Positions 1,960-18,645 of a stretch of 64,000 bases of DNA are shown in pieces. Source of the stretch: a bacterium (GTDB lineage: Bacteria > Bacteroidota > Ignavibacteria > Kapaibacteriales > UBA7675); assembly GCA_030430495.1 (NCBI GenBank), contig JAUIKM010000013.1:1-64000 (forward strand). The letters run 5' to 3'. The notes under the pieces were generated by a model. It saw nothing but the letters and a program-made list of their open reading frames with translations, was not told the DNA's origin and ran no database searches. The position numbers and the translations under genes were made by a program. The stretch's first letter is position 1, and every line of letters begins with the position of its first letter.

Positions 1960-3939
1960 TCAGGAAATCCCCTCCACCACCGGCTCCACCCAAACCCCGT
2001 CCTCGCGTATGAGATCGATCAGTGCGTCGACGGCTTCTTCCGTGACGACGTTCTTGCGCACGACGTTCTGACCGCGGTACAGCGTGATACGCCCCGGACC
2101 CGATCCGACATAACCGTAGTCCGCGTCGGCCATTTCGCCGGGACCGTTAACAATGCAGCCCATGATCCCGATTTTGACGCCCTTTAAATGATCCGTGCGC
2201 GAACGGATCATCGCAGTGGTTTCCTGCAGGTCAAACAAGGTGCGGCCGCAGGAGGGACAGGATATATATTCGGTGCGCGAAATGCGAGTGCGCGTGGCCT
2301 GCAGAATGCCGAAGCTGAAAGAATTTAAACTGCGGTGACTGACCTGCGCTCCCCCGCTCAACCACAAGCCGTCGCCCATGCCGTCGAGCAGCAAAGCTCC
2401 CGCGTCGGTGGCGGCACGCAGCAGCAGACGATCGGCATCCAGATCGTTAAATTCTCTGCGAATAACAACCGGATTGTTAACACCGCTCCCGATCAGCGTG
2501 CACAAGGCGCGGCGCATGGCCGGCATCCTGTGTTTGTTGTCGCTCGAAAGGACAAGTACGGCGTTGGCTGTGTTCTTCAGCATCTGAACCAACGATTCGT
2601 CCAGGTCTTCCGTTCGTGTGTTAACCAGACAGACCGAGCCGACCGACCCTCCCTCCTGGAAAAACTCATCTCTATTAAACAGCGGCAGCACGTGCTCGCG
2701 CCGCGGTCGATTTTTCCAGACATTAGAATCTTCGATTAAACGCAGGGTGCCGGGAAGCTCAAAATCCACCTCTTTTGCACCGACGTACACCGCGTCGCAG
2801 GCCAGGTCTCCAATATTCCATTTGTCGAGCGGCACCGAGTAATTGTAGCCAACGGCGCTGAGTACGGCCGGAGTTATCGATTCCATGTGCGAGAGATCGG
2901 CAATCACGCGCGGAACATTTGCGCCGCCGAACGAGCCGACGGTAATCGACTCGCGCCGCGAATACACGTACGGGTCGTAGGGCAGTTGTTTAAGCGCCGG
3001 AATTGGCGCGTGATCTTTTCTGTTTGTATAACGCTCCACCAGCGCACGCGCCACCGGAATCTCCGCCTCGGGTTCCTCGGTTAAACTCACGCGCACCGTG
3101 TCGCCCAGACCGTCCTCCAGCAGCGTGCCGATACCCACCGCCGACTTTGTACGCCCGTCCTCGCCGTCGCCCGCTTCCGTCACGCCCAGATGCAGCGGAT
3201 AATTCATGCCCTCTTTTAACATCGTGGCCACCAGCAGTCGGTATGCCTGCACCATAACCTGCGTGTTGCTGGCTTTCATCGACAGCACGATGTCGTGATA
3301 GTTTTCCGCGCGACAAATTCGCAGGAACTCCATCGCGGACTCGACCATACCCAGCGGCGTGTCACCGTAACGGCTCATAATGCGATCCGACAGCGAACCG
3401 TGGTTCGTGCCGATGCGCATCGCCGTGCCGTACTCCTTGCAGATTCTAACCAGCGGCGTAAAACGCTCCGCAATGCGTTCAATCTCAGCCTCGTACTGCG
3501 CGTCGGAATATTCGATCAACTGAAACTTTTTCTTGTCGGCGTAGTTGCCGGGATTAACACGCACTTTTTCAACAATGCGCGCGGCCAGTTCGGCGGCATT
3601 CGGTGTAAAATGAATGTCGGCAATCAGCGGCGTGGTGTAGCCCTGTGCGCGCAGTTCCTGTTTAATATTCTCCAGGTTGCGCGCTTCCTTTAAACTCGGC
3701 GCGGTGATGCGCACGTACTCACAGCCGGCCTCGATCATGCGAATGCTCTGCGCCACCGTCGCGGCCGTGTCCATCGTGTCGGTCGTGGTCATCGACTGCA
3801 CGCGGATCGGCTTGTCGCCGCCGAGCGCCACGTCCCCAATCTTCACTTCACGCGTTTTGAAGCGCGAATACGCCGTCAGGCTGTTGCAATAAGGATCGTT
3901 CGGCTCAATGCTCGTATGCTGGTTGGAGCGTGTTTCCAT
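1960..3939 (-). CDS. ispG: (E)-4-hydroxy-3-methylbut-2-enyl-diphosphate synthase, long form
   Basis: IspG (GcpE) makes HMBPP from methylerythritol cyclodiphosphate, the penultimate step of the MEP isoprenoid pathway, using a [4Fe-4S] cluster in the cytoplasm. The N-terminal TIM-barrel part is clear (VQSMTTTDT, EYVRITAP, ADIHFTP, VRVNPGNYADKK). The C-terminal cluster domain has CPSCGRTLFD and MGCIVNGPGE, which supply the conserved cysteines. At 659 residues it is the long form with an extra central domain, as in Bacteroidota, Chlorobi, Chlamydiae and plants, rather than the ~370-residue enterobacterial form. The ATG at 3939 has a GGAA 6 bases upstream. It lies downstream of, and co-directional with, the surface operon but about 100 bp away, so it is probably a separate unit. 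The gene is rich in TTAA despite being a core gene. Confidence 0.96.
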   Translation of the reverse strand: METRSNQHTSIEPNDPYCNSLTAYSRFKTREVKIGDVALGGDKPIRVQSMTTTDTMDTAATVAQSIRMIEAGCEYVRITAPSLKEARNLENIKQELRAQGYTTPLIADIHFTPNAAELAARIVEKVRVNPGNYADKKKFQLIEYSDAQYEAEIERIAERFTPLVRICKEYGTAMRIGTNHGSLSDRIMSRYGDTPLGMVESAMEFLRICRAENYHDIVLSMKASNTQVMVQAYRLLVATMLKEGMNYPLHLGVTEAGDGEDGRTKSAVGIGTLLEDGLGDTVRVSLTEEPEAEIPVARALVERYTNRKDHAPIPALKQLPYDPYVYSRRESITVGSFGGANVPRVIADLSHMESITPAVLSAVGYNYSVPLDKWNIGDLACDAVYVGAKEVDFELPGTLRLIEDSNVWKNRPRREHVLPLFNRDEFFQEGGSVGSVCLVNTRTEDLDESLVQMLKNTANAVLVLSSDNKHRMPAMRRALCTLIGSGVNNPVVIRREFNDLDADRLLLRAATDAGALLLDGMGDGLWLSGGAQVSHRSLNSFSFGILQATRTRISRTEYISCPSCGRTLFDLQETTAMIRSRTDHLKGVKIGIMGCIVNGPGEMADADYGYVGSGPGRITLYRGQNVVRKNVVTEEAVDALIDLIREDGVWVEPVVEGIS

Positions 3940-4043: not shown

Positions 4044-6152
4044 CTATTTGCCGGGTTCGTATTCAATCACCAGCGCGGGGCTGCTGCGCCAACGCTCATC
4101 GCGCGCCTCGATTTCATATCTGTAAGCCTGATCGATCTGCGCCGAACGGTCCACAAAACTCGAAGCCGGAGCATCCAGCTGCGCCGCGTTGATCTTTTTA
4201 CCGCTTGTTTTATTAACGCGCATAATCACATATCCGGCCGGCGGTGGTCCGGCTCCCGCGCGCCAGCTCAGGGTAAGCTTGCCGTCCACATTTGTGGCGC
4301 TGCCCATTTCCGGTTGCGCCGGCAGTGTGTTTAACGGCATGGACAGAGTCTGCATTGTTGAATAATCCGACGCATTGCCCGCACTGTCCACGGCGGCAAC
4401 CGCCACTGCGACACGCCCGCTGTCGACAACCGTCCAGCGGTATTCCGGCACGGTCGACGCCGGAAACTCCACCAGCTCTTCCCTGCCATTGTTAACAGTT
4501 TTCAGGCGGTACAAGGCCAGGTCTTCGGCCGCAACGCTGGTCCACTCCACGAGCAGTTCACGCGAGCCGCCGATTTGTTCAAAGCGCCGAATAAATGGCG
4601 CGGGAGGCGGCGTCACATCCGGCAGACGCAGCGCAATCAGATCCGTGGGCGCCGAGTTGTTGTAACTCCGATCAACGGCGTGCACGACGTAGCCGTAAAA
4701 AGTCTGTGACTCGCGCGGCAGTGTGTCGACATAGCTGGTGTCCGTTAAATATCCTTCGTGCAGTTTAAAGCGCGTTCCCATTGCGCGGTCGGAGGCGCGC
4801 TCCAGCACATAACCCAGCAGGTCAGCAGCATCCACCGCATTCCAGCTTAAACGAATCAAACCGGTGTCGGCAACAGCCGTAAAACCGCCCGGCGTACGCG
4901 GCGCACGTGTGTCGGCCAGAACAATGTCGACCGTATCCGAGGGCGCGCTGAATTTCCCTTCACCTGCCGTGCTGCGCAGGAAATACCGGTAGTTAACGCC
5001 CTGCCGCACCATCGGATCGATCCAACTTGTCGCCGTGTCCCACAGCGCATCCGAGAGCGGGTGCATCCGTTTAAACTCTGTTTCGTTGTCTTCCCTGCGC
5101 CAGACTTCGTAGCCCGACGCCTTGCCGCCGCGCGGCGAGCGCCAATTAAACATCACACCGGACCCAAACTCGCGCCAGACGATATTCCGCGGCGGGCCGG
5201 GAACTTCACTTCCGTCGGGACGCGCACTCACAATCGGGCTGGGCGCGCTCTCAAATCCAAAGGCGTTGACGGATTTAACATAGTAAAAATACTCTCTGTC
5301 GAAGTCGAGAAAACGATCCTGAAAACTCTCCTCCGCTGCGGCCGCGCTCTCCGCACCGACGTTGACAACCGGCAAATAACCGCTGCCGTTGACGCGTTCA
5401 AACGGCCCCAGCACGTCGTCGGCGCGGTAGATGTTAAACGTCACAATATCGCCGCGACGCATGTCTTCAAGCGGCCTGGGCCAACTCAGGCGGATGCCGC
5501 CGTTTTGCGGTTCGATATTGACATAAGCAACCGGCGCAATCACCTGGGCCGAGGTTGTTGTAAACATCTTTGTCTGCCCAAGCTCGCTCTCGGCTCCGTT
5601 TTGCAGCGCGGTCACACGATACTGCGCCTGCACTTGCCTGGCCGATATCGAATCGATACAAATCTCGCCGTGCACAAAACCAAAATCCCAGTTGACCAGA
5701 CTGACGACTTTTAACAGAGCGACGGCATCGCGATTGTTAAACAGATTTTCAAAGACCGTCTGATCAATCGTCCGTACCGGGTTGACCGCACCGTAGAGCG
5801 AGAGCACAACATTGCCGCGCAGCTCGCCGAGCAGGTCGTTTATCTGCTCGGGCTCGCGCAGGCGCTGAATATCCGCGCCGACCTGTGTCCATCCGGCGCC
5901 GATGGAGCTGCGGCGATACACGCGAAATCCATTCACATTTGCGCTGCGCAGTCCCTCCCAACGCAGATACACGGCATCGCGGCCGACGTAGGAAATCACT
6001 TGCGGACTGTCCTGCGCCAGAACATCCACCCCGATGGTTAACAAAAGGATCATGCCAAAAGCGAGCAGCTTTTTCAGATGCTTTAACCCTCCCTGCGGTT
6101 CGGGTAGCGCAAACAGCCTCTTTTTGTTCGTCATTGTGTTTAATGCCGCCAT
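4044..6152 (-). CDS. secreted protein with six fibronectin type III repeats
   Basis: The start at 6152 is preferred: it has AGGA 6 bases upstream and lies 22 bp after the stop of the giant gene, whereas the longer frame to 6221 overlaps that gene. The protein (702 residues) opens with a basic stretch and one hydrophobic segment ending VLAQ, a signal peptide with signal peptidase I site. The rest is a string of about six fibronectin type III-like domains, each with a LRLSW/VEW-type strand and a GY-x-[VI] strand (for example LRWEGL, IRLSWPRP, MFNWRSP, IRLSWNAV, LLVEWTSV, LTLSWRAG). Such proteins are extracellular or outer-membrane-associated binding or spacer proteins. No T9SS tail is obvious at the C-terminus. 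It is the last gene of the four-gene operon starting at 18645. Confidence 0.85.
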   Translation of the reverse strand: MAALNTMTNKKRLFALPEPQGGLKHLKKLLAFGMILLLTIGVDVLAQDSPQVISYVGRDAVYLRWEGLRSANVNGFRVYRRSSIGAGWTQVGADIQRLREPEQINDLLGELRGNVVLSLYGAVNPVRTIDQTVFENLFNNRDAVALLKVVSLVNWDFGFVHGEICIDSISARQVQAQYRVTALQNGAESELGQTKMFTTTSAQVIAPVAYVNIEPQNGGIRLSWPRPLEDMRRGDIVTFNIYRADDVLGPFERVNGSGYLPVVNVGAESAAAAEESFQDRFLDFDREYFYYVKSVNAFGFESAPSPIVSARPDGSEVPGPPRNIVWREFGSGVMFNWRSPRGGKASGYEVWRREDNETEFKRMHPLSDALWDTATSWIDPMVRQGVNYRYFLRSTAGEGKFSAPSDTVDIVLADTRAPRTPGGFTAVADTGLIRLSWNAVDAADLLGYVLERASDRAMGTRFKLHEGYLTDTSYVDTLPRESQTFYGYVVHAVDRSYNNSAPTDLIALRLPDVTPPPAPFIRRFEQIGGSRELLVEWTSVAAEDLALYRLKTVNNGREELVEFPASTVPEYRWTVVDSGRVAVAVAAVDSAGNASDYSTMQTLSMPLNTLPAQPEMGSATNVDGKLTLSWRAGAGPPPAGYVIMRVNKTSGKKINAAQLDAPASSFVDRSAQIDQAYRYEIEARDERWRSSPALVIEYEPGK

Positions 6153-6174
6153 CGTCGATCCTGTTGACAGTCGC

Positions 6175-9100
6175 TTAAAGAGAAGTCTCGAATCCAACGT
6201 CGAGTTGAGCCGAATCGGCATAGATCCACACGTCCCAGCTCACCTGAGCCGTACCCGCAAGTTTCAAACGCGAAGTTGAAGCCTGAAGCTGCGCAGCGAG
6301 GAACAAACGGCCGCTGATCAGGTTTGCCGTGCCAAGCGGCGTGTCCAGATCGACGTCCCAATATCCCTCAAACGACGCGCTCGCGTTTAACGTGCTCGTC
6401 GAACGAACGTAGTCGAAGTCGCCGGTGAAGTTGACGCCGAGCGCGACTATCACGTCCACCACGCCGAAGGGAAAAGTATTGTTAAACTCGTAAAAAAGTT
6501 TGCCGTGCAGCCGCGCGCGATCGCTGCTGATGTCCACGTCGCCTTCCAGATTGAGCGCCTGGAACAGCGATCCCGAGAGTTCTTCGCTTTTGATGTAAAA
6601 GTCCGTCGGCGAATAGAGATAATTGATCTTGCCGTTAAACTGCGCTATGCCGCCGTCGGCGTCCGGCAAGGCGATAAACATGCGCACAAAACCGTCCAGT
6701 TGTTCCGTCGGCGCCCAGCGCAGATTCAACTGACCTTCGCCGAAGAGGTTGTCCTCCATCTGCAGCAGCCACATCTTGCCGTTCAGACTGAAAACACCGG
6801 GCGTCAGCACCATGCTTAAACGCCCGGCAAAGACCTCTCCGCCCGGCGTGTTGCCGATGCCGATGACGGCTTTAAACGAATAGTCGTCGTAGTGCGCCGG
6901 CGAACCCTCCTGCGAACCGATCGGCGGATTGTAGTTGTAGCCCACGCCGCCGCCCAGTTCCAGCAGCGAAAGGCCCGTCTGCCCCAGCGGAATGCGCGTG
7001 CCGAGCGTCATCTCGGCATACCAGTAGGTGTAGCTGTTTAAACTGTCAATCGGCGCGCTGCCGATCACAAGCATGCCGCTCAGGCCATTGTTGATCAGTT
7101 TTTTGATGCCGATGTCGAACTCGCCTTTGAACTCCGTACCGGAATATTCAAACGCGCCCGCAAACTCGACCGGCCCGGCCTCAAAACTGATGTGCGCTTT
7201 GTTAAACGCCACCGCAACCGTCGGCCCCGGCGCTATGCTGACCGTGCCCGTCACATCTTCGATGCCGATCAGCGGCATGGCAAAGCCGCCCTGCATCTCC
7301 AGCGAATATTCCTCATTGCTCAGTGCAAACGCAATTGTGTTAACATGCAGATCAAAGCCGCGGCCAAAGCTGATTGATCTGTCGATGCGGATCTCGTCGG
7401 CTTTGATCTCGCCCAGGGAGTTAATCTCAAAACCGCTGATGTCCATCTCGCCGTAGTTTTCCGAGGAAATGACGGCGCTTATAGTCAACGTGCCCACGCC
7501 GCTGCCCTCGTCGTAGCTGATGCCCGTGCCGTTGCGCAGCATGAAGGCCGTGTTAAGTCGCGGAATCGAAACCGGATCGTCGGTCGAAACCGTCGCGGCC
7601 CAGGTCTCACCCGAGCGCCCCACGCCGACGCGCAGCGTGCCTTCAAAAGGCGACGGCAGGCCAATCGCTCCGCCGAAATACCCGTTGCCGTTTAACTCGT
7701 TGTCCTTAAAACCTATCGCAAGGCTGTCAATTTCAAACAGATAACCGGCAAACCCGGCCTGGAACAATGTGCCGCCAAGCGAAATCTCACCGCTCAGACC
7801 TGACGGCGCAATGGCAAAGTCCTGCACGCTCAAGGTCGGCGGACGACCGCGTTCAACATCCTTGAATATCGGCGGCAGTTCCAGCGACGCGTTGTGAATG
7901 ACAATGCCTTTGAAGTCGTAGGCAAAGCCGGGCATGCTGCGCTCTTCGTGCATGTCGATGCTGAAACGCGTGCCGTCGCGCAGTTTAAATCCTCCCACCT
8001 CTATGCCGGGAACATGTGAAACCGTGCCGAGGAAATTGCCGACGGTGTCAACTTCGGCGTAGAAAGACATCGGATCTTCTATGTTGCGGTGTTTTAAACC
8101 GCCGCCGATGCCCGCGCCCATCTGCGCCCGCACCACCAGCGAGTCGAGCGTGACGGTAAAACCCCACATCGTGGTTTCAAATCCGGCGGGAGTGCGCCAG
8201 ACGACGTAGCCGCCGCGCGCTATCTGCTCCCCGGCGTCGTTTTCTTCCAGTTCCACATCAACGATGTTTAATTCCAGGTCGCTGAGCAGCGCCACAAACT
8301 GGCCATTGCTGTTGTCCAGCTTGCCGCTGCTGTTTAACAGGTCGCCAGGCGTAGCCGGCTCGTCCAGCACAACGGTAAACAACTGTTCGTCGACGCCGAT
8401 TTTGAATCGGTCAAAACTTTTGGTGCTGAGCGTGTCGCGCACTTCCGGCGGACGGCAGACGTCTTCGTAGCGTTCGTCGCAGGATTCCAGGATTGTTATC
8501 AGCTCTTCTTCAGGCGGGTCGAGTGCCAGCGTGCGGCCCATGCCGAATAGTTCGGTCGTGTCGCTCTCCGGATCGACGTCGAGTCGCGGCGTTTCCACCC
8601 TGAACATCAACTCAATATCGTTGACGTAGTTAACATCTTCATCCCAATAGCCACCCATGGCGTGCGCGCGGCCGGCGTAGTTTGTCTCGGCGTCCTCGTC
8701 GCGACTGTCGGGAAAACTGTTAACAATCGTCGCGGGATTGCCGCCGCCGCTCCACAGTTGTTTGGCGGCCTGGAAAGCAAAGTCTGGCGGTCCGTTGCTG
8801 AAACGCAGGGGTTGCAGGTTCAAGGGCGAAACGGCGTCAAACTGCTCGCTGCGGCAGACCGTGCCGGCGCGCAGCCACCTGACGGAGATGGTAAACCTGG
8901 CAAAACCCTCGCCGAAGTTAAATGTGGTGCGCGCCACGCCGCCGCCGTCGGTTTTGCGCGTCACAAGACTGTCGCTTCCGTCAAAACCGTAGCTGACGGC
9001 TTCGCCGGCCGTCAGCGTGACGGAGAACTCGACGTCTTCGCCGCTCAGGCCGCTGTGATCGCCGCGCACGACGCGCGCCGTGACTTCTTTGTTTGTTGTC

Positions 9101-12100
9101 GGCGCGCCGACCAGCGAGTCCGGCACTTCGATCAACACGCCGGCTTTAACCACTGGTTTTGACGACTTCTCAAGCGGATCGTCGCGTTTAATCTCGGCCG
9201 CGGTGTATTCTGTTTTAACTTCTTTTGGCTCCTCACAAAGACTTTTGGCCGGATCGGGCGGCTCCCACAGAATAGTTTCATAGAAGGGTTTCTGATTAAA
9301 CAACCTGCCGTCGCCGCTCCACTTGTACTTGCCCAGGTCGCGGATACCGTCGCGTTGATCGGGCGGCGCTTCACAGTTCGGCGGTTGCGGCTCACAGACC
9401 TGGATAAGGCGGTCGCTGTCGCGGCCGAGCGTGGCGACGGGCACGACGTCTTTGGCCAGCAGGTTCGTTTCAGACGCGGGAATGACCGGCCATTCCGGCC
9501 AGAGTTTGCGGCCGTTTTCGTACATCAGCGCAATCGTACGCGGCTCGGAAGCGCTCACCGTCGGCGGCGGCAGCGTGGGATCGGCCGGTTTGATAAAACT
9601 CAGATTGACCGGACAGGCCAGGTTTTTGTCGAAGTCGCCCAGCGTGTATCCGGCTACGTTGTTTTTGAACACCGGAACGCGATTGCCGCGATAACTCAAC
9701 TGCCGCACAAGCTGCTTTTTGGGGTCGTCACTGCGGTAGGCGTCCGCGGGTTCGTCGTCGGCTTCAAGCGTGATGGTCACCGTGTGTGTGACCGTGTTAA
9801 ACTCATTGACGAGAAAGGTGCGCAGGTGATCTTCGGCGCGCCGCAGCGCGTCTTCCGCCTGTTTAATGTCGTGGTCGACCTGTTGCAGCAGTTCGTCCTT
9901 GCGTTGCAGGATATCGCCCGCCGCTGTGGCGGCGGCGGTCTGTGCGTCTTTGGCGGCCTGAATATCGGCGTCGAAGGCCGCCAGCGCTTCCCGCTTGCTG
10001 CGCACATCGTTGTCGTCGTTGACGCGCGCGGCGACGGAGTCCTGCAGCACGCGGCGCTCGCGGTTGGTATTTGCGATTGCACCTTCGGCGTCGCGGCGTT
10101 CATCGCGCCAGTGCAGCCAGCCGGAAAGCGCTTCGCGCAGCTCGTTGTTTGCGTTTTCCAGGGTATCGCGCGCTGCGGCGGCGTCCAATCTGGCCTGCAC
10201 CAGTGCGGCGCGTTTGTGCTGCACGATTGAGTCGGCCGCGGTGAAGCCGCGGGCGCGTGTTTCATGCCGGTCGCTGCTCTGCGCCAGTTGTGATTCCAGT
10301 CGCGCTACTTCATCCTGCTGGTTTTTAACTTCCTGATTGCGGCTGTTTAACTGCACGCGTTGCCTTCCCGCGCCGCGCAGATCGTTGCGCGCGGTTTCAC
10401 GCGACAGCGCGTTCTGCGTCTCTTCGGCCCGATCGCGCAGTCGGTCCAGCTCGCTGCGCGCCTCATTCAACTCGTTGGCATGCTGCTCCAGAGTCAGACG
10501 CATGGCGTCCAGCTGGCGGGACTCAAAGTCGCGTTGGCTTTGTGCGGCGTCGTAGTCCCGTTGTTTAAGATCGCGCTCCTGTTCGCGGTTCTGCAACTCA
10601 CTGCGCGCCCGCGCCACGGCGGCATGCGCCTGCACGGTGTCCTGAACCGCCTGATTTTCGCGCTGCTGCGCCGCGTCGCGCTCCTGCGTGCGTTGGTCGA
10701 GCTGATCCTGCAGCTCGCGCTGCTCGTCCTGAAAAGCGCGTGTACGCGTGGTGCGCAGACGCGCCAGCGCACGGTCGACGGAGTCGCGTTCGGCGGTCAG
10801 CGCAGATTCGAGGTCTTTGGCCTGTTTAAGTCGCACCAGTTGGCGCGCCAGATTCTCAAGCCATTTGGCCAGCGTTTTTTGCGCCTGAATTTTGGCTGCG
10901 CGCGCTTCCGCCAGCTCCACGCGTTTTTGGCGCACCGAGTCTTTCAGTTCCTCAAAGCGGCTCTTGTCCTGCATGATTTCTTCAAGCGGCGGCGGAATGT
11001 AGTAGGCAATGACGCCGTCGGCGGTTTTGTTGCCGGCCGTCAGCGCGGCCAGGCGCGCGCGCAGAGCGTCAACCTGCGCCTGCAGGTCGGCAATGTCTTT
11101 GTCCAGCGCGGCGATAATTTTATCCAGCGCATCCAGCTGATCCTGCAGGTTGATGTTTAAAACATCCGTCAATCCTTCACGCACGGCGCGCAGGCGACGC
11201 TGCATCTGCATGTTCGCCGCCGTGTCGGCCTGCACCGCGACAAAGTTGACGCGCAACTGCGTGGTGTCGTTAAACACCATACCAAGCGAGTCGTTGACGA
11301 GTTCGATGCCGTGTAGGCCCTGATCGCGCAGGTTCTGCGCCGCGCCGCGCCGGCTCAGATAGTTTTCGCGGTTCAGCTCCAGGTCGCGCCGGCGCGTATC
11401 CACGATGGAGGAATAGTTTGTTTCGGCCTCCGCCAGACGCGCGGCGGCCTTTTCATGCAATTGCGCCAGGTTGTCGCGCTCGCCGCTGAGCGCTTGCACC
11501 TGCGCGGCAAAGTTGTTGCGCGCGGCGATTACAGCCTGGGCGGCCGCCTGTACCGTGGCGGCGGCACCGACGATCTGTCCCCTCACCTGATCCAGCTGAT
11601 TGCGCAGCTGGTTTAACTGCGCGCGTTTAACCGGGTCGATGCGCAGCCTGCCCGAGGCCGTCGTGTCGACCACGTATTCAAAACCGGCCGACTGCTGCGC
11701 AATCTGCGCCGCGTCCGACGCGCAGGATCCGCGCCGCGACGTGTCGGGATGCTGCGCGCAGGAAACCCGAAGTTTGCTCAGAAATCCCGCCAATTTGGAC
11801 TGAAATTCGCGGAACGCCTGACGACGGCGCGGCAGGGCCGTCAATTCGAGAATCCGATCGGCTGATCGCGCCACGCCCGACTGACGCCGAACCAGGTCTT
11901 CGTGCAGATTTGTGCCGCTGAAATTGCGCGCCACGACTTCGGCGCTTTGTCTGGTCCAGGTGCGCAGATGCTCCAGATAACGCCGCATGCGCGGGTCCGC
12001 AAACAGCTGCGTTTCAATGGTCGTGATCTGCGTGGACAGACCATTTGACTGTTGTTTAAGTTGTTCGTAGTCGGCGTTGGCCGTCTGCACCTGGCGCTCG

Positions 12101-14226
12101 GCGTTTAATATTTCCTGAGCCAGTCGTTCTGATTCACTCAGCAATTCTTCCGATTTGCGGCGCAGGCTGCTGTCGGCGCGTTCGGCGGCTTCGCGCGCCG
12201 TCCGCACCGCGGCCAGACTGTCCTGTTCCACCTGCGTGGCGTCGCCGCGCAGAATGGCGTCGAGTGAGTCGATCAGCGTTTGCGCCTGCGATACTGAATC
12301 CCGCAGCTGTGTGCGACGCTGCGCCAGCTCGTCGCCCCGGCGCTCGCGGATGCTGATGCTGTCGGTAAGTGCGCCGAGGCTGTCGATCATGATGCGCGCG
12401 GCGCTGTCCAGCCTGTTTAACTCACTGTCGATATTGTCGATTTTCCCCTGGGCGATGTCTTTGCGGCGCTGCAACTCGGCGGGCAATGAATCGCGTTCGG
12501 CACGGCGCTCGTCGCGCTCGGCTTGCAGCGCGGCTTTGCGGTTGACCAGATCGACAAGTTGTTCCTCGATCGACGTGGCCGAATCGGCGCTGAAGGGCAG
12601 GTTCAACGATCCCTTGCCGTCGAGCTTCCACGTGAATTTGCGCACGTTGTCGCGCACGGCTTTCCAGTACTCGTCCGGGCCGTCGCCGCAACCGTCACAG
12701 CCGAAAATGGCGTAGTCCCAGTCGACGGCGTCGGCGCGGATCGGCACCGCACGCGGATATGGAAATGTTTTGGGCTCGTCGACTATCATGCCGACGTCGA
12801 TGCCGCGCGCGGGAATCTTGATGAATGGCAACATCACACACTCGTCGCGCAAACTGTCGGGCGGGATGCGTTCCCAGGGCGGCCGTTCCACGACCGGAAT
12901 GCTGTCGCGCGGTTCACCTTCGGCCGGAATGCTGTCGCGCCGCACCGGATCGCGAACGATGGTGGAATCGCCGCGCAATTTGTCGGTGCTGTCGCGCACC
13001 GACGGTCCTTCAGTGATCGGACCGTCAACAACCGACTCGCCGTCAAAGCGGATTCTGGTTGATCCGGAAGACTGACCGCACCTGCATTCGCGGCCGCCGC
13101 AGCGCACGCTGACTTCGTAGTCGATCTGTGCGTCACCGGCCCGGTCGACTTCCACCGGCAGAGTCGGGCCTTCAAACTCCAGCGAGTAAGTCGTGCCGTC
13201 GTCTTCCGTCATCGTCACGAACCAGCGCACGTTAACTTCCAGCGGGCAGTCCGGTGGACAGTCGGTGATGACATTCGGATGTAAAACAAATTTGTCGCCG
13301 ACGCGAAAGCGATTGCCCGGCGTGATTATCACGCCGTTCATTTCGGCGCGAACTCCGTTAATAAAACACTCGCGGCAAACGCACTCGTTTTGCGTTCCTG
13401 ACGCAAAGGTAAACAAAAATGGCTTGGCCCAGCCGTCGGGGTCGCTCAGCGGGCGTTCATCCTGATCAAGCGCCTGGACGGACCAGATAAAGGAACTGGC
13501 CAGGTCGACCGGAATCTCGAGTCCCAGCGGCAGCGGTATCTGCGTCTGCCCGTTCAGGTCCTGTGTGAAAAGCGGCACGCCGTTGCGAAACATGTTAAGT
13601 GCGTTCTGGCCCGGCGGCACTTCAAATATCGCCAGGCGGTAGATGACGCCTTCAGTTGAGGGCGGCGTCAGCGGCGACCAGCGGAAAACGATCAGTTCGT
13701 CCTGTTGCACGACGTCGCCGTCGACCGGGTTGATGAGCACCGGCGCCTGGTAATTGGTAATGTCGAAGGGCCGACAGTTTAACTGCGAGAGTTCCTGCAT
13801 CGTCTCGGCGTCGAGCACCTGAACGCAGATCTGATGCCGCCCCGCCGGAATGCGCCCCGTGCGCAGGGCGTTTTCCTGCAGGCGCGGCGCGAGGCGTACG
13901 GCCGCGTAAGGCAAAATGTCGGCGGCGTCAAAGCGATTGATTCCCGGTACGAGTTCGAGCGGCGGCAAAAGGTTCGGATCCGTTTCAGCCAGCACGTCGC
14001 CGTTGTTTAAGTCCGAAACCTGCGTCGTGATGCGCACAAAACGCTCGTCCGTGCCGCGGTTTGTGACAATGATAGTCGCGGTTTCGCTGCGGTTCTGCCA
14101 GTCGGAAAGCCAGGGCGAAGGATTGGGGTTCATCTGCAGCGCGACCTGCACGGGCTGCGCCGCAAGCGGACGCGCCACAAACGCGAACAGGAGCAGACAC
14201 AGACAAACAGGCAGACTGCGCAGCAT
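6175..14226 (-). CDS. giant secreted coiled-coil surface protein (2683 aa)
   Basis: A signal peptide (residues 1-24, ending PLAAQ) leads into an N-terminal module of about 130 residues. A fibronectin-like domain follows (about 155-275; RWSPLTPP, FIWSVQALD). Both are clearly shared with the upstream gene product. Next come a Cys-rich segment with CVCRECF and CGRECRCG (about 280-390) and a Pro/Asp/Ser linker. A very long Gln/Arg/Glu/Ala-rich heptad region, predicted coiled coil, spans roughly 550-1475. A bacterial Ig-like domain lies near 1700-1800 (EVTARVVRGDHSG), and the last ~880 residues are repetitive and beta-rich. No catalytic motif is recognised. The start codon lies 3 bp after the upstream stop, so translation is probably coupled. 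The N-terminal module may belong to the TANFOR-type domains of Bacteroidota; that is a guess. The role is inferred to be an elongated surface or periplasm-spanning structure. Confidence 0.85.
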   Translation of the reverse strand: MLRSLPVCLCLLLFAFVARPLAAQPVQVALQMNPNPSPWLSDWQNRSETATIIVTNRGTDERFVRITTQVSDLNNGDVLAETDPNLLPPLELVPGINRFDAADILPYAAVRLAPRLQENALRTGRIPAGRHQICVQVLDAETMQELSQLNCRPFDITNYQAPVLINPVDGDVVQQDELIVFRWSPLTPPSTEGVIYRLAIFEVPPGQNALNMFRNGVPLFTQDLNGQTQIPLPLGLEIPVDLASSFIWSVQALDQDERPLSDPDGWAKPFLFTFASGTQNECVCRECFINGVRAEMNGVIITPGNRFRVGDKFVLHPNVITDCPPDCPLEVNVRWFVTMTEDDGTTYSLEFEGPTLPVEVDRAGDAQIDYEVSVRCGGRECRCGQSSGSTRIRFDGESVVDGPITEGPSVRDSTDKLRGDSTIVRDPVRRDSIPAEGEPRDSIPVVERPPWERIPPDSLRDECVMLPFIKIPARGIDVGMIVDEPKTFPYPRAVPIRADAVDWDYAIFGCDGCGDGPDEYWKAVRDNVRKFTWKLDGKGSLNLPFSADSATSIEEQLVDLVNRKAALQAERDERRAERDSLPAELQRRKDIAQGKIDNIDSELNRLDSAARIMIDSLGALTDSISIRERRGDELAQRRTQLRDSVSQAQTLIDSLDAILRGDATQVEQDSLAAVRTAREAAERADSSLRRKSEELLSESERLAQEILNAERQVQTANADYEQLKQQSNGLSTQITTIETQLFADPRMRRYLEHLRTWTRQSAEVVARNFSGTNLHEDLVRRQSGVARSADRILELTALPRRRQAFREFQSKLAGFLSKLRVSCAQHPDTSRRGSCASDAAQIAQQSAGFEYVVDTTASGRLRIDPVKRAQLNQLRNQLDQVRGQIVGAAATVQAAAQAVIAARNNFAAQVQALSGERDNLAQLHEKAAARLAEAETNYSSIVDTRRRDLELNRENYLSRRGAAQNLRDQGLHGIELVNDSLGMVFNDTTQLRVNFVAVQADTAANMQMQRRLRAVREGLTDVLNINLQDQLDALDKIIAALDKDIADLQAQVDALRARLAALTAGNKTADGVIAYYIPPPLEEIMQDKSRFEELKDSVRQKRVELAEARAAKIQAQKTLAKWLENLARQLVRLKQAKDLESALTAERDSVDRALARLRTTRTRAFQDEQRELQDQLDQRTQERDAAQQRENQAVQDTVQAHAAVARARSELQNREQERDLKQRDYDAAQSQRDFESRQLDAMRLTLEQHANELNEARSELDRLRDRAEETQNALSRETARNDLRGAGRQRVQLNSRNQEVKNQQDEVARLESQLAQSSDRHETRARGFTAADSIVQHKRAALVQARLDAAAARDTLENANNELREALSGWLHWRDERRDAEGAIANTNRERRVLQDSVAARVNDDNDVRSKREALAAFDADIQAAKDAQTAAATAAGDILQRKDELLQQVDHDIKQAEDALRRAEDHLRTFLVNEFNTVTHTVTITLEADDEPADAYRSDDPKKQLVRQLSYRGNRVPVFKNNVAGYTLGDFDKNLACPVNLSFIKPADPTLPPPTVSASEPRTIALMYENGRKLWPEWPVIPASETNLLAKDVVPVATLGRDSDRLIQVCEPQPPNCEAPPDQRDGIRDLGKYKWSGDGRLFNQKPFYETILWEPPDPAKSLCEEPKEVKTEYTAAEIKRDDPLEKSSKPVVKAGVLIEVPDSLVGAPTTNKEVTARVVRGDHSGLSGEDVEFSVTLTAGEAVSYGFDGSDSLVTRKTDGGGVARTTFNFGEGFARFTISVRWLRAGTVCRSEQFDAVSPLNLQPLRFSNGPPDFAFQAAKQLWSGGGNPATIVNSFPDSRDEDAETNYAGRAHAMGGYWDEDVNYVNDIELMFRVETPRLDVDPESDTTELFGMGRTLALDPPEEELITILESCDERYEDVCRPPEVRDTLSTKSFDRFKIGVDEQLFTVVLDEPATPGDLLNSSGKLDNSNGQFVALLSDLELNIVDVELEENDAGEQIARGGYVVWRTPAGFETTMWGFTVTLDSLVVRAQMGAGIGGGLKHRNIEDPMSFYAEVDTVGNFLGTVSHVPGIEVGGFKLRDGTRFSIDMHEERSMPGFAYDFKGIVIHNASLELPPIFKDVERGRPPTLSVQDFAIAPSGLSGEISLGGTLFQAGFAGYLFEIDSLAIGFKDNELNGNGYFGGAIGLPSPFEGTLRVGVGRSGETWAATVSTDDPVSIPRLNTAFMLRNGTGISYDEGSGVGTLTISAVISSENYGEMDISGFEINSLGEIKADEIRIDRSISFGRGFDLHVNTIAFALSNEEYSLEMQGGFAMPLIGIEDVTGTVSIAPGPTVAVAFNKAHISFEAGPVEFAGAFEYSGTEFKGEFDIGIKKLINNGLSGMLVIGSAPIDSLNSYTYWYAEMTLGTRIPLGQTGLSLLELGGGVGYNYNPPIGSQEGSPAHYDDYSFKAVIGIGNTPGGEVFAGRLSMVLTPGVFSLNGKMWLLQMEDNLFGEGQLNLRWAPTEQLDGFVRMFIALPDADGGIAQFNGKINYLYSPTDFYIKSEELSGSLFQALNLEGDVDISSDRARLHGKLFYEFNNTFPFGVVDVIVALGVNFTGDFDYVRSTSTLNASASFEGYWDVDLDTPLGTANLISGRLFLAAQLQASTSRLKLAGTAQVSWDVWIYADSAQLDVGFETSL

Positions 14227-14229
14227 GGT

Positions 14230-16770
14230 TTATTCCCCCGCCGCGTTTGTAAATGTTATCCTGCAATCAGCGCCGGAACAGGCCGGCAGCCGCGCCACAA
14301 ATGTACCCGATGCATCGCCGGCAAGCAGCAGTTCCCAGGTCTCGCCGTTGGGCATGCGCAGCAGTTGCGTAACGTCCATGGTATTGTTTTTGCGGTTGAG
14401 TGTAACGTCAATTGTTTCCAGTTTACAGGTCATGAGTGCGGGATCCACGTCGGGCAGCGGGTCCAGCGCGCAGTGCGACGTGATCAGCAGCACCGGGCCG
14501 TCCGGCCCGAAAGCGCGCGCCTGCAGCAGCGTGCCGAGGTACATTCCGTCCTTGTTTTCGGGATCGTAGAGCGAGAGCGTCTCGCCGCGCGCTGTGTTTA
14601 AGGAGTCGAGTTGTTTAACAAGACCTGCCGTTTTTTCACCTGCGTCAAACCACAGCAGGCCGACGCGCTTCCGGTCTTCGCGGCGACGCAGCGTCGGCGC
14701 TGCGCGTTGAGTGCGGCCGACCGTAAAACCGGATTCCAGAATGTCGTAGTCGTCGAATGTTTCGACGTCGGGACGCCGCCAGGGATCGATGCCCCGGTTT
14801 TTGAGGGGCGGGAGGCCGGGAGCATTCACCATTGCTGCAAGTTGTTTCAGCCCGATAGATGTATCGGCACGCGCCGGCAGATAAACGCCGATGTAATTCG
14901 TGTACCAATCGAACTCGGCCGCCTGGGCGTCGGACATCAAATTCGGGGGCAACAGCGCCAAAAAGTCGGATTCAAATTGATCGACCACCCGCTTCCGGTT
15001 TGACGAATCGATTTTGCTCGTTTCAAAGCGACGCAGCAACTTAAACAGGTCCATTGTTTGTGCGTTGTTTAACTCCGGTGCGCGCATGCATAAGGAGGCC
15101 AAAAAATCGCGACTTGCGCTTTGCGCCCGATCCGCATCATTCATAGCCCAGCTCTGCGGCCGGCTCAGCAGAAGCGGCGCCGATATGTCGGCGAGCCACA
15201 GTGTTTTGCCGGATTCCTTTGTTTCAGGTTCCGAAGCCTCGCGCACCAACTGCAAATTGTCGACAAAAGGTTTAAAGCGACCGTCGCGAATGCGGCTGTG
15301 GTTCTGATTCCCTTCGAGCAGTCTCCAGCCATCCCGCGGGACAAATGGATTGTCGGTTTCCACCTGCAATGTAAACTGCATACCGCCCAGTCGTCCCGTC
15401 GGATCGTCAACGGTTGTTAACTGTTTGTCGCCGGTTTGCAGCAGTTTGATCGCTTCCACCAGATAATCGGTTTGCGGCGCTTCGGACAGTTCGCGAATGC
15501 GCAACAGCGGGGCGCTGTAGAACGAACTCCCCGTATCGCTGCGGGCGCTGTGGTTGTAAAGGGGCTGTAGAAGAGACAAGCTGTCGCTTGTTAGTTTTGT
15601 AGCGCCGAATTCGCCTGTTAAACTCCGGGCGCGATTCTCCTGTTCGCCTTCGCGCGGTAAACGCCAGAACTGCACGTCCGCCTCGACTCCGTCGCGGCCA
15701 AGCCCAACAACCGTCGCTTCGTCCGCTGGATTAACATCGAGCGGTTTGAAGAGCGCATATTCGGGCGTAAACACTATCGTCGTGCGCTCGCGTTTGCTGT
15801 CGGCCAGGGACTTCGCGCCGGAAATGGTCAGTGGACTTTTGACCTTGTCGCCGCCGTCCGCAAGCTGAGTTGTAAACCCATTGTCGGCATCCCCGCCGAA
15901 CTCCTGCGATTCGCTCATGCCCTCGGGTGCGACGACTTCAAGCATGGCAAAGGTAAAGGGCTCGGCGTAGCCGTCCGGCTCGCCGAGCGGATTGTCGTCG
16001 GCGTCCAGCGCGCGCACGTTCCAGACGTAGCTCTGTCCGGGTGCGGGCAGCTCGACGTCCGGCGGCCAGGGCAGGCTCGTGATGCCCTGCGTCTCGGTGT
16101 TTAACACCGGCTGGTTGGCGCGGAAAGCCTGCACCGCGCGCTGCCCCGGCAGAACCTCAAAGACCTGTAAAACGTAGCGCACGGCGGCCGGCCCGTCCGG
16201 CGGCGCGGGCACGACCGGCGTCCAGCGGAATATCGGACGGCGCTCGCGCACCGGGTCGATCTGCGCTCCGTTGCTCGGCAAAACCAGCAGCGGCGCCTGA
16301 AAGTTGACAATGCGAAACGGGCGGCAAATCTCATTCTGCGTCAGTGTTCGCAGGGTCTGCGGCTCAAGCAGGTCAACGCAGATTTCATACGCGCCCCCGG
16401 GAATCCGGCCGCTGCGCAGCACCTGGTTGTCGACGTCGCCAAAAAACTGCACGTTTTCGAGCGGAAAGATCTCGGCCGGATCCAGCGTCGTCGCGCCCGG
16501 CTCAAAAGTGAGGACGTCCATCTGCGCGTCGCGCGTGGCGGCCACGCGCTCGCCCAGGCGCGCAATCGTGGTGCGCACGCGCGCCTGCACATTCTCCGGA
16601 CTGTTGTTTGTGACGATCAGCCGCGCCGTGTTGGTCTCGTTGCGCCAGTCGCTGACATAGGGCGTCGGGTTTGGCGTCATGATCAACTGAATAGTCAGTT
16701 CGTTTTGCGCGGCGAGTTGGCATATGCCGGCGCACATCAGGATCAGAACTGTGAGTGAGTATTTAAACAT
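14230..16770 (-). CDS. secreted protein sharing N-terminal module with the giant protein
   Basis: 846 residues with a signal peptide (residues 1-22, ending QLAAQ). The first ~270 residues are a paralogue of the start of the 2683-residue protein: compare LIMTPNPTPYVSDWRNETN with LQMNPNPSPWLSDWQNRSE, and RPFRIVNFQAP with RPFDITNYQAP. A fibronectin-like domain with FRWTPVVPAPPDGPAAVRYV follows. The remainder (about 290-846) is unrecognised, with no repeats or catalytic motif that I can name and a C-terminal pair of cysteines (PACSGADC). It starts 24 bp after the barrel gene and ends 3 bp before the giant gene, so the three are certainly co-transcribed. A partner or anchoring subunit of the giant protein is the natural inference. 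Confidence 0.8.
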   Translation of the reverse strand: MFKYSLTVLILMCAGICQLAAQNELTIQLIMTPNPTPYVSDWRNETNTARLIVTNNSPENVQARVRTTIARLGERVAATRDAQMDVLTFEPGATTLDPAEIFPLENVQFFGDVDNQVLRSGRIPGGAYEICVDLLEPQTLRTLTQNEICRPFRIVNFQAPLLVLPSNGAQIDPVRERRPIFRWTPVVPAPPDGPAAVRYVLQVFEVLPGQRAVQAFRANQPVLNTETQGITSLPWPPDVELPAPGQSYVWNVRALDADDNPLGEPDGYAEPFTFAMLEVVAPEGMSESQEFGGDADNGFTTQLADGGDKVKSPLTISGAKSLADSKRERTTIVFTPEYALFKPLDVNPADEATVVGLGRDGVEADVQFWRLPREGEQENRARSLTGEFGATKLTSDSLSLLQPLYNHSARSDTGSSFYSAPLLRIRELSEAPQTDYLVEAIKLLQTGDKQLTTVDDPTGRLGGMQFTLQVETDNPFVPRDGWRLLEGNQNHSRIRDGRFKPFVDNLQLVREASEPETKESGKTLWLADISAPLLLSRPQSWAMNDADRAQSASRDFLASLCMRAPELNNAQTMDLFKLLRRFETSKIDSSNRKRVVDQFESDFLALLPPNLMSDAQAAEFDWYTNYIGVYLPARADTSIGLKQLAAMVNAPGLPPLKNRGIDPWRRPDVETFDDYDILESGFTVGRTQRAAPTLRRREDRKRVGLLWFDAGEKTAGLVKQLDSLNTARGETLSLYDPENKDGMYLGTLLQARAFGPDGPVLLITSHCALDPLPDVDPALMTCKLETIDVTLNRKNNTMDVTQLLRMPNGETWELLLAGDASGTFVARLPACSGADCRITFTNAAGE

Positions 16771-16794
16771 CGTCGCGTCGTCGTCCGGAGATTG

Positions 16795-18645
16795 TTAAAA
16801 AGTCGTCGAGAGCGCCGTCTGGATGAAGTTTTCCTTGTAACTCACATCCGGGCGGGCGCTGCCGTATTCGTAGAGTTTAAGCGAGCCGGTCAGGCTCAGA
16901 GTCAGACTGCGCGCGGGGCGATAGCGCAGTCCCAGGCGCAGCAGCAGGTTCTTGTCGGCCGTAAACGCGCCGATGCTGCTGCTGGAATATGTCAGTTTAA
17001 AGGTCGGCGTCAGCATGCCCTCAAACAGGCGGTAGCTGAGCGAGCCGTGCAGGGAGTTGACGTCGAGGCTGGAACTGCCCAGCCCCCCCGCCGCCAACGA
17101 GTCCGGCCGGCTGACCATGTTGTTGAATCCGATGCCCGCGCTCAAGGGGATGCTCAGAAATTGCGCCGTGTAGTTGGCAAACACCGAACGCGTCGTTGAA
17201 CTGTTGAGCGCGCCCAGCAGCACATCGCCGTCGTTGAAGTCGTCGTAGGCAAAAGTGGCGCTCAGCTGGTGAATCAGGCGCTCGGTCGGAATGTTGATCA
17301 AGGGTGAGATTGCCAGCGAGTGAGAAATCATGTCGACGCGGCGCACGTTGAAATCGTCGACGTCGCTGCGGAAACCGAAGTTGGTGTAGTTGGCGCTGAC
17401 CATCAGGTCGGGCGAAATCTGCACGAGCAGGTTGGCCGACGCCAGCAGCTGCCGCGTCTGCGGCGAGGCCGTATCCGTAATATTGTTAAACCGCAGTCCC
17501 ACGCTGGAACTGAAGTCGAGCGCGCCGTCCAGCAGGCGCAGGCGCGGCGCGAGCGTCACCTCCAGGTTGTCCGACTGCACGTAGGGGAAACCGAGCGGCT
17601 CGTAGCCGGGACCGAGAAAACGCGCGCGCGTCTCCACGCCCCAGTCGTCGAAGTCGAGGCCGACGGAGAGCGCGGCGGCTATATCGCCGTAGGTCGATTC
17701 GCGAATATCGAAGACATCCTCAAATGCGTCCAGCGCTTCGTTGCCGCTCAGCGGCGCACTTTGATCGCGCGTGAAGGCCGAGGCGGCAAGTTCGCTTTTC
17801 ACCGTTACCGCGTCGGCAAAGCGGAGGTCGCCGGTCAGCGAGAGCAGCAGGCCGGACTCGGCGCGCAGCATGCCGTCGGTATTTGCCACCGAGTTTGAGT
17901 CGTCGCGCATGCGCACCAGGTTGAGGCCCACGCGCGCGGCGTCGGGACTGCCGTAGGCCAGGCGCAGCGTCGTCAGTTGGCGTTCGTAGGTCGAAGCTGC
18001 AAAGGCCGGCGTCGTCGATTCGGCGGCGCGCTGCGCAATGCCGTGAAAAGCCGCCAGCTGGAAGTCGCCCGGACTCAGATCAAATCCCGCGCCGAAGAGC
18101 TGGATGTCGCCCGTCGAAAGTTCGCTGTACTGCGGCACGTGATGCCCCAGATACACCGTGGCCCATTGGTAGCTGGGCGCGATTGAAATGCGGTTCATCG
18201 GATTTTCGAGAAATTGCGAGAGGTTCTGCTCGGCCACGCGCGGCGTCGTGACGTTGGTCTGGTCCGTCGAAAGCAGGAAGGTCACCGGGATGCGCAGGTC
18301 GCCCAGGTGCATGGTTGGAGCAAAGAGCAGGCGATAGAGATTGGCAGGGCGGCGGGCGGAGACGGTTCCGGCGGGATCGGGCTCCATGCTGTAATAATCG
18401 GCTGAAATACGCGCGGCGCCGTCGATGCGAAACCAGGGCTCGTCGCTCGTCGCCTCATCCGCCGCGGGAACCAGTGTATTTGCCGCCGGCCGGCCGCTGC
18501 TGTCCTGCACGGCTGCCGACGCGGCCCGCGGACACAGCACCGCGCACGCGCCGACGAACAAAATGGCCATGGAGAAAGCCATGCGTAGCAGGGCGCGCAG
18601 CAGCATAAAAACCAACGACTTAGGGAGACCGCCAAGTGCAAACAT
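16795..18645 (-). CDS. probable outer-membrane beta-barrel protein, first gene of surface operon
   Basis: 616 residues. An N-terminal hydrophobic segment (about residues 14-43, ending ASAAVQ) is a signal peptide. Translation may instead begin at an internal ATG at 18606, which would shorten the leader by 13 residues. The mature part is made of alternating polar/hydrophobic strands with many Ser, Asn, Tyr and Leu and ends in phenylalanine (LSTTF), typical of outer-membrane barrels recognised by the Bam machinery. No specific family such as PorP or TonB receptor is recognised. As the first gene of the operon it is a plausible outer-membrane anchor or export channel for the three secreted proteins encoded behind it. 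No clear Shine-Dalgarno. Confidence 0.75.
   Translation of the reverse strand: MFALGGLPKSLVFMLLRALLRMAFSMAILFVGACAVLCPRAASAAVQDSSGRPAANTLVPAADEATSDEPWFRIDGAARISADYYSMEPDPAGTVSARRPANLYRLLFAPTMHLGDLRIPVTFLLSTDQTNVTTPRVAEQNLSQFLENPMNRISIAPSYQWATVYLGHHVPQYSELSTGDIQLFGAGFDLSPGDFQLAAFHGIAQRAAESTTPAFAASTYERQLTTLRLAYGSPDAARVGLNLVRMRDDSNSVANTDGMLRAESGLLLSLTGDLRFADAVTVKSELAASAFTRDQSAPLSGNEALDAFEDVFDIRESTYGDIAAALSVGLDFDDWGVETRARFLGPGYEPLGFPYVQSDNLEVTLAPRLRLLDGALDFSSSVGLRFNNITDTASPQTRQLLASANLLVQISPDLMVSANYTNFGFRSDVDDFNVRRVDMISHSLAISPLINIPTERLIHQLSATFAYDDFNDGDVLLGALNSSTTRSVFANYTAQFLSIPLSAGIGFNNMVSRPDSLAAGGLGSSSLDVNSLHGSLSYRLFEGMLTPTFKLTYSSSSIGAFTADKNLLLRLGLRYRPARSLTLSLTGSLKLYEYGSARPDVSYKENFIQTALSTTF

What the first reader, a model, noticed from the sequence alone, without database searches (positions are those of the whole stretch)
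4044..18645. Four-gene operon for a giant coiled-coil surface structure: possible undescribed system
Seen: barrel-like protein, then two signal-peptide proteins sharing a ~270-residue N-terminal part, one of them 2683 residues with about 900 residues of coiled coil, then a six-repeat fibronectin III protein. Gaps are 24, 3 and 22 bp. An uninterrupted coiled coil of that length would span on the order of 130 nm, though breaks are likely. Known parts (FN3, coiled coil, barrel) point to the cell surface, but I do not recognise the set as a described secretion, gliding or adhesion machine. Inference: the shared N-terminal module is a common docking domain to the barrel, and the giant protein forms a fibre or spacer.
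Basis: partly seen in the sequence, partly recalled or inferred. Interest (0 to 1): 0.62.

Follow-up and report, generated by a model that had tools for sequence, protein, structure and literature searches.

The report
Outer-membrane barrel paired with giant protein
This gene cluster makes a very wide outer-membrane barrel together with giant exported proteins, and the same pairing recurs across a whole bacterial phylum, which suggests that the barrel is the missing outer-membrane partner of the "TANFOR" family of exported proteins, some of which are toxins.

Summary
The four genes are real and correctly described, but they are not an isolated oddity. The shared ~270-residue N-terminal module belongs to the TANFOR (TIGR02542) superfamily, known since 2020 as the N-terminus of Bacteroidota polymorphic toxins. 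The core is a three-gene cassette: barrel, TANFOR-type giant, FN3 protein; the 846-aa protein is an extra TANFOR paralogue. Across the phylum, 32 of 37 barrels have a TANFOR-type gene within three genes (28 directly adjacent, same strand). Two genomes carry N-module–barrel gene fusions. Cognate pairs co-evolve (r = 0.89). The barrel is predicted with confidence (pLDDT 88) as ~26 strands without POTRA or plug, closest in the PDB to MtrB and pilus ushers. No family library names it, and the 2020 TANFOR paper does not mention it. The giant's coiled-coil region has a nearly fixed length (1014–1025 residues) at only about 20% identity. It is better read as two hairpins with ~200-residue arms (~30 nm) than as a 130-nm fibre. 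Its C-terminus is conserved to the end, so it is not a swapped toxin tip. Best explanation: the barrel is the outer-membrane anchor or conduit for the TANFOR module. Function is untested.

The parts
16795..18645 (-). Outer-membrane beta-barrel (P0004, 616 aa), ~26 strands, signal peptide, no POTRA or plug domain
   Evidence: AF2 pLDDT 88.4, pTM 0.78, strands 72-615; Foldseek best hit MtrB 6r2q_B E 1.2e-11, then FimD/PapC ushers; no Pfam or NCBIfam family for 52 members beyond stray weak hits
14230..16770 (-). Second TANFOR-type protein (P0003, 846 aa): signal peptide, N-module, then ~490 residues without homologues in 60 related genomes
15901..16770 (-). N-module of P0003 (TANFOR-like half plus FN3-like half)
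   Evidence: TIGR02542 at 59-154, E 0.001-0.005, below the curated cut-off; alignment A10 of 63 modules
6175..14226 (-). Giant TANFOR-type protein (P0002, 2683 aa)
13357..14226 (-). N-module of P0002
   Evidence: 36% identity to P0003 over 274 aa
12592..12789 (-). Conserved pre-coil beta domain (residues ~480-545, ...WKLxGKGSLNxPF)
   Evidence: 48% mean pairwise identity in 12 giants
11041..12591 (-). Helical/coiled-coil block 1 (residues 546-1062) with a two-Cys helical region ~745-870; proposed hairpin 1
10957..11040 (-). Midpoint motif K-x-A-x-G-x-x-x-YYIPPPLE (residues ~1063-1090)
   Evidence: 53% mean identity versus 16-21% in the flanking coils; strongest helix break (7.2 SD)
9805..10956 (-). 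Coiled-coil block 2 (residues 1091-1474); proposed hairpin 2 with apex ~1284
6178..9777 (-). C-terminal all-beta region (residues 1484-2683), conserved to the last residues in 12 orthologues
   Evidence: A7 alignment; AF2 all-beta but pLDDT 67, pTM 0.34
4044..6152 (-). FN3-repeat protein (P0001, 702 aa from ATG 6152), signal peptide, ~6 FN3 modules, no T9SS CTD

Best explanation
The cluster is a TANFOR surface-protein cassette. The barrel gene encodes a dedicated, very wide outer-membrane barrel whose partner is the N-terminal TANFOR/FN3-like module of the giant (and of its 846-aa paralogue). After Sec export, the N-module engages the barrel from the periplasm or inside its lumen. The barrel then holds, or lets through, the rest of the giant, so that its coiled-coil hairpins and beta-rich body are displayed on the cell surface. 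The FN3 protein is a third, usually co-encoded surface or periplasmic partner. In some bacteria the same module-and-barrel pair carries variable C-terminal ends. In the window the payload is a constant structural body: two fixed-length coiled-coil hairpins projecting about 30 nm from an Ig-like base, plus a ~1,100-residue beta-rich region. Shown: gene pairing, fusions, co-evolution, barrel fold (confident prediction), fixed coil length, conserved C-terminus. Inferred: physical docking, surface location, direction of transport, hairpin geometry, any biological role.
For: Synteny: barrel, TANFOR-type and FN3 genes together in window relatives, with order shuffled but linkage kept (L040, L044, L086, L091, L095, L096). 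Of 37 barrels scored across the phylum, 32 have an N-module gene within three genes, 28 directly adjacent on the same strand. Fusions of N-module and barrel in two families: L094 1357-4404 (1016 aa) and L097 1512-4352 (947 aa). Mirror-tree r 0.888 against a permutation maximum of 0.13; paralogous cassettes in the same genomes keep cognate partners (barrels 75/72% and N-modules 77/71% identical to their orthologous partners, 20-25% across cassettes). The nine best TIGR02542 loci of the phylum that were fetched have the FN3 protein in 9 of 9 and the barrel in 6 of 9 within 19.5 kb. Barrel ~26 strands, PDB matches MtrB and ushers. Coil span 1014-1025 aa in eight measured giants while its start varies from residue 526 to 700.
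Against: No direct evidence of contact between module and barrel; no complex could be modelled. N-module genes occur without a nearby barrel in 8 of 20 loci of the order, and barrels without an N-module in four loci (L108, L125, L130, L136). The mirror-tree value partly reflects species relatedness. A wide barrel need not be a transporter: MtrB, the best match, is a sheath for a cytochrome. TM-scores to PDB barrels are about 0.4-0.5. A8, the first barrel profile, was built from barrels next to TANFOR genes. The beta core is not assigned to a fold.
Confidence: 0.5

Rival explanations
1. TANFOR proteins are T9SS substrates, as Jana et al. 2020 proposed; the barrel only anchors or retains them at the surface after T9SS export.
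For: The genome has a full-length SprA (934.6 bits) and at least 78 T9SS CTD matches. TANFOR neighbourhoods are enriched for SprB repeats and CTD proteins, and >95% of TANFOR genomes have T9SS (PMC7073777).
Against: No T9SS CTD model matched any of the four proteins at E<=1; the giants' C-termini are a conserved beta region, not a CTD. T9SS CTDs are present in all 61 genomes searched, so co-occurrence says little. A dedicated barrel would then be needed only as an anchor.
Confidence: 0.22
2. The 2683-aa and 846-aa proteins are polymorphic toxins with C-terminal toxic domains.
For: TANFOR superfamily membership. In L153 two tandem TANFOR proteins are 96% identical over 484 residues and unrelated after that, in a locus that also holds the FN3 and barrel genes. 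P0003's last ~490 residues are an orphan.
Against: The giant's C-terminus is conserved to the last residues in 12 orthologues, the opposite of a swapped tip. No toxin or immunity family was found in P0002 or P0003, and the next gene downstream is the FN3 protein.
Confidence: 0.08
3. The system is a trans-envelope conduit: the C-terminal beta region forms a groove that carries lipid or polymer to or from the barrel, the coiled coils act as a periplasmic spacer, and the giant stays periplasmic.
For: The core is predicted all-beta with dozens of antiparallel strands; weak Foldseek matches to LptD and ApoB. Fixed coil length would suit a spacer across a compartment of fixed width.
Against: The core model is poor (pTM 0.34) and all matches have TM below 0.25. 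A ~30-nm hairpin matches typical periplasm width only loosely. Relatives with variable ends argue for export.
Confidence: 0.12
4. One uninterrupted coiled-coil rod or fibre of about 130 nm.
For: About 930 residues are mostly helical with heptad signal in several windows.
Against: Break of 7.2 SD at YYIPPPLE, non-coil region 745-870 and further breaks at 665 and ~1400. Paired indels sit at mirrored places (582 with 1025-1033 in L082, L085, L086; net -6 on each side of ~1284 in L089), which fits antiparallel hairpins.
Confidence: 0.1

Closest known systems
TANFOR-domain polymorphic toxins of Bacteroidetes (TIGR02542; Jana, Salomon and Bosis 2020, PMC7073777)
   Same: Homologous N-terminal module after a signal peptide, large proteins, FN3 proteins encoded next door, same phylum
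   Different: The window's giant has a constant beta-rich C-terminus and fixed-length coiled coils instead of a swapped toxin. The barrel partner is not mentioned in that paper. The N-module scores far below the curated TIGR02542 cut-off
MtrB of the MtrCAB porin-cytochrome complex (PDB 6r2q; PMC7198977)
   Same: Best structural match of the barrel; ~26 strands; wide barrel able to hold another protein
   Different: No multihaem cytochrome in the cassette (no CXXCH in the four proteins), no detectable sequence similarity, no Pfam hit
Chaperone-usher outer-membrane ushers (FimD, PapC)
   Same: 24-strand wide barrels that pass folded Ig-like domains; among the next-best structural matches
   Different: No plug, chaperone or pilin genes here; no detectable sequence similarity
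Two-partner secretion (TpsB/TpsA)
   Same: Logic: one dedicated barrel encoded next to a giant protein with a conserved N-terminal recognition module
   Different: No POTRA domains, no Omp85 match, N-module is Ig/FN3-like rather than a beta-helix TPS domain
T9SS surface proteins and the SprB operon
   Same: Bacteroidota surface giants with signal peptides; genome has T9SS
   Different: No T9SS CTD; barrel not PorP/SprF or PorV family by profile search

Membership tests
TANFOR proteins (TIGR02542) | N-terminal TANFOR domain above the curated score | tested here: inconclusive
   P0003 19 bits against cut-off 67. The own-genome paralogue at C17 scores 46.8 bits, E 9.8e-12. 21 of 63 aligned N-modules match at E<0.01, best 2.1e-13. 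No genome in a 395-genome phylum sample passes the cut-off. So superfamily yes, curated family not met
TANFOR polymorphic toxins | Variable C-terminal toxin domain with neighbouring immunity gene | tested here: not met
   C-terminus conserved in 12 giants; no toxin family in P0002 or P0003
T9SS substrates | C-terminal sorting domain (TIGR04183 or relatives) | tested here: not met
   No such match in P0001-P0004 at E<=1
T9SS substrates | Organism carries T9SS | tested here: met
   SprA TIGR04189 934.6 bits; at least 78 CTDs
Two-partner secretion / Omp85 | Barrel with POTRA domains | tested here: not met
   Strands begin at residue 72; nothing but signal peptide and disordered linker before; no Omp85 or POTRA Pfam match
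MtrB/PioB porin-cytochrome | Sequence family match and partner multihaem cytochrome | tested here: not met
   No Pfam match; no CXXCH in the cassette proteins. Fold resemblance only
Chaperone-usher | Usher family match, with chaperone and pilin genes | tested here: not met
   No usher Pfam match for the barrels; the cassette genes are barrel, TANFOR-type and FN3 proteins

The most novel reading that the evidence does not exclude
Bacteroidota possess a dedicated two-partner export or display system, independent of T9SS, in which a ~26-strand plug-less barrel recognises the TANFOR N-module and moves or holds giant surface proteins, including the TANFOR polymorphic toxins.
Probability: 0.33. Interest if true: 0.85.

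Novelty: new variant of a known kind. Interest (0 to 1): 0.58.

Why it matters
How TANFOR proteins, some of them antibacterial toxins, cross or stay in the outer membrane is an open question: the 2020 paper could only suggest T9SS. A conserved barrel paired with the module, sometimes fused to it, gives a direct candidate that can be tested by one deletion. The barrel family has no name in Pfam or NCBIfam. A second point of interest is a sequence-variable coiled coil held to almost exactly the same length across families, which implies a fixed geometry.

Tried and rejected
Genome-contig search with P0003 alone found nothing. The first barrel alignment had no stretch conserved enough for that search. 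Core-to-core profile comparison A3 against A4 gave no significant match, so homology of the beta cores beyond the coiled-coil giants rests on local matches. Foldseek of the core model is uninformative: best hits have TM below 0.25. A mixed alignment of fusions, barrels and N-modules for a docking model mis-registered with both MAFFT modes, so no model of the fused protein was made. 'Toxin' was rejected for the giant because its end is conserved. 'Single 130-nm rod' was judged less likely because of breaks and mirrored indels. 'Unrelated genes side by side' was rejected by phylum-wide linkage.
Full report
What is there. The four minus-strand genes are as described: a barrel of 616 aa, an 846-aa protein, a 2683-aa protein and an FN3 protein, with gaps of 24, 3 and 22 bp. 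All four begin with a hydrophobic signal-peptide-like segment (seen in the sequence). Downstream lies ispG (1960-3939; named from its sequence); upstream, a TPR protein and a histidine kinase. The N-terminal ~274 residues of the 846-aa and 2683-aa proteins are 36% identical.

The N-module is a TANFOR-superfamily module. TIGR02542 matches P0003 weakly (E 0.001-0.005), but the paralogous cassette on contig 17 of the same genome matches at 46.8 bits, E 9.8e-12, and P0003 matches that paralogue at 1.1e-11. Of 63 aligned modules, 21 match TIGR02542 at E<0.01. None passes the curated cut-off in the genomes sampled, so this is superfamily membership, not a clean family hit. Jana et al. 2020 (PMC7073777) describe TANFOR proteins as Bacteroidetes polymorphic toxins, report FN3 neighbours, and propose T9SS export. 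Their main text does not contain the word barrel; its supplements were not read.

The cassette is conserved. In the order, 46 of 61 genomes have an N-module protein. Neighbourhoods repeatedly show barrel, TANFOR-type giant and FN3 protein, sometimes in the order giant-FN3-barrel. Named MAG contigs with the closest giants carry the set where the contig allows. In other classes of the phylum, loci found only through the giant's core show the same set. To reduce circularity I searched 118 phylum genomes with the barrel profile, fetched the hits with E below about 1e-27 and scored neighbours. Of 37 barrels, 32 have an N-module gene within three genes and 28 directly adjacent on the same strand; one of the five misses (L114) is cut by the fetched stretch and still has the FN3 gene. 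The 37 include eight loci seen earlier through the giant or the module. At one to two N-module genes per ~3000-gene genome, chance adjacency would be well below 1% (my estimate). Conversely, the nine best TIGR02542 loci that were fetched all have the FN3 protein, and six have the barrel within 19.5 kb (L145, L148, L149, L150, L151, L153).

Fusions and co-evolution. L094 (1016 aa) and L097 (947 aa) encode an N-module followed by a barrel in one chain, in genomes of different families. For 50 cassettes the pairwise distances of barrels and of N-modules correlate at r 0.888 (permutation maximum 0.13). Two genomes with several cassettes keep cognate partners: 75% and 72% barrel identity between orthologous cassettes, 77% and 71% for their N-modules, and 20-25% across cassettes. 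Species relatedness contributes to r, but the within-genome comparison does not depend on it.

The barrel. With 52 sequences AlphaFold2 gives pLDDT 88.4 and pTM 0.78: 25 long strands plus one short one between residues 72 and 615, preceded only by the signal peptide and a disordered linker. Best PDB matches are MtrB (E 1.2e-11, TM 0.46-0.47), then pilus ushers and assorted porins and receptors. MtrB is a 26-strand sheath around a cytochrome (PMC7198977; that paper was seen as a search hit, and the strand number is my own knowledge of it); no CXXCH motif occurs in these four proteins. No Pfam or NCBIfam family describes the barrels. A barrel this wide could in principle hold or pass Ig-like domains; that is inference.

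The giant. In eight orthologues the distance from GKGSLN to EPRTIAL is 1014-1025 residues, while the position of GKGSLN ranges from 526 to 700. Pairwise identity inside the coil is 16-21%, against 48% just before it and 53% at a midpoint motif K-x-A-x-G-x-x-x-YYIPPPLE. Length is thus kept while sequence drifts. The motif is the strongest helix break (7.2 SD). Block 1 (546-1062) holds a Cys-containing region at 745-870 flanked by segments of ~200 and ~192 residues; block 2 (1091-1474) has a weaker loop-like spot near 1286 that splits it into ~195 and ~190. L082, L085 and L086 share deletions at 581-583 and at 1025-1033, mirrored around ~807. L089 loses a net six residues on each side of ~1284. 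I read this as two antiparallel hairpins with ~200-residue arms (about 30 nm at 0.15 nm per residue) set into an Ig-like domain. This is inference from lengths and indels; L041 has an uncompensated deletion, the deletion sizes at 582 and 1030 differ, and no model was made. The C-terminal ~1,100 residues are predicted all-beta, but the model is poor (pTM 0.34) and its fold search uninformative. They are conserved to the last residues in 12 orthologues, which speaks against a swapped toxin end.

Variation. Two TANFOR proteins per cassette also occur in L094 and L153. In L153 the two are 96% identical over 484 residues and then unrelated, the mark of exchangeable ends, beside the FN3 and barrel genes. 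So the same pair seems to serve both variable and constant payloads.

Mechanism and limits. The best-supported reading is that barrel and N-module are partners at the outer membrane, with the giant displayed outside and the FN3 protein as an accessory. That they belong together is strongly supported (about 0.85 by my judgement). Whether the barrel anchors, plugs with, or transports the giant is open. T9SS is present in the genome, but none of the four proteins has a detectable T9SS CTD.

Noticed in passing
G000 contig 17, locus L049: 5451-15461: A second, diverged barrel-TANFOR-FN3 cassette in the same genome (20% identity to the window's barrel); its N-terminus is the best TIGR02542 hit of the genome.
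   Followed up: yes
L137-L144: A distant family of longer barrels (about 790-920 aa) lies in a different conserved cluster: genes resembling dxr and rseP, a ~350-400 aa protein (weak N-module match in six of eight loci), a FecR-domain protein, the barrel, and a CHASE2-adenylate/guanylate cyclase. FecR and CHASE2/cyclase were confirmed by Pfam in sampled loci. It may be a signalling relative of the same pairing.
   Followed up: partly
L132-L135: A minimal two-gene version: a 934-1015 aa N-module protein directly followed by, or overlapping, a 644-695 aa barrel, with no giant or FN3 gene nearby.
   Followed up: partly
L153: 7827-18105: Tandem TANFOR proteins 96% identical over the first 484 residues and unrelated afterwards, in a locus with FN3 and barrel genes: modular exchange of C-terminal ends.
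   Followed up: partly
window 14230-15700 (C-terminal ~490 aa of P0003): No homologue in 60 related genomes and no family match; an orphan payload region.
   Followed up: no
L080, L085, L087: MAG records named Armatimonadetes, Crocinitomicaceae and Bradyrhizobiaceae carry this cassette; some organism names look misassigned (L080 closely resembles the Chlorobiota record L081; L087 appears to be the same contig as a genome of the window's order).
   Followed up: no
L082: 6536-13876: A giant that keeps the coiled coil and beta core but matches P0003 only in the second, FN3-like half of the N-module.
   Followed up: no
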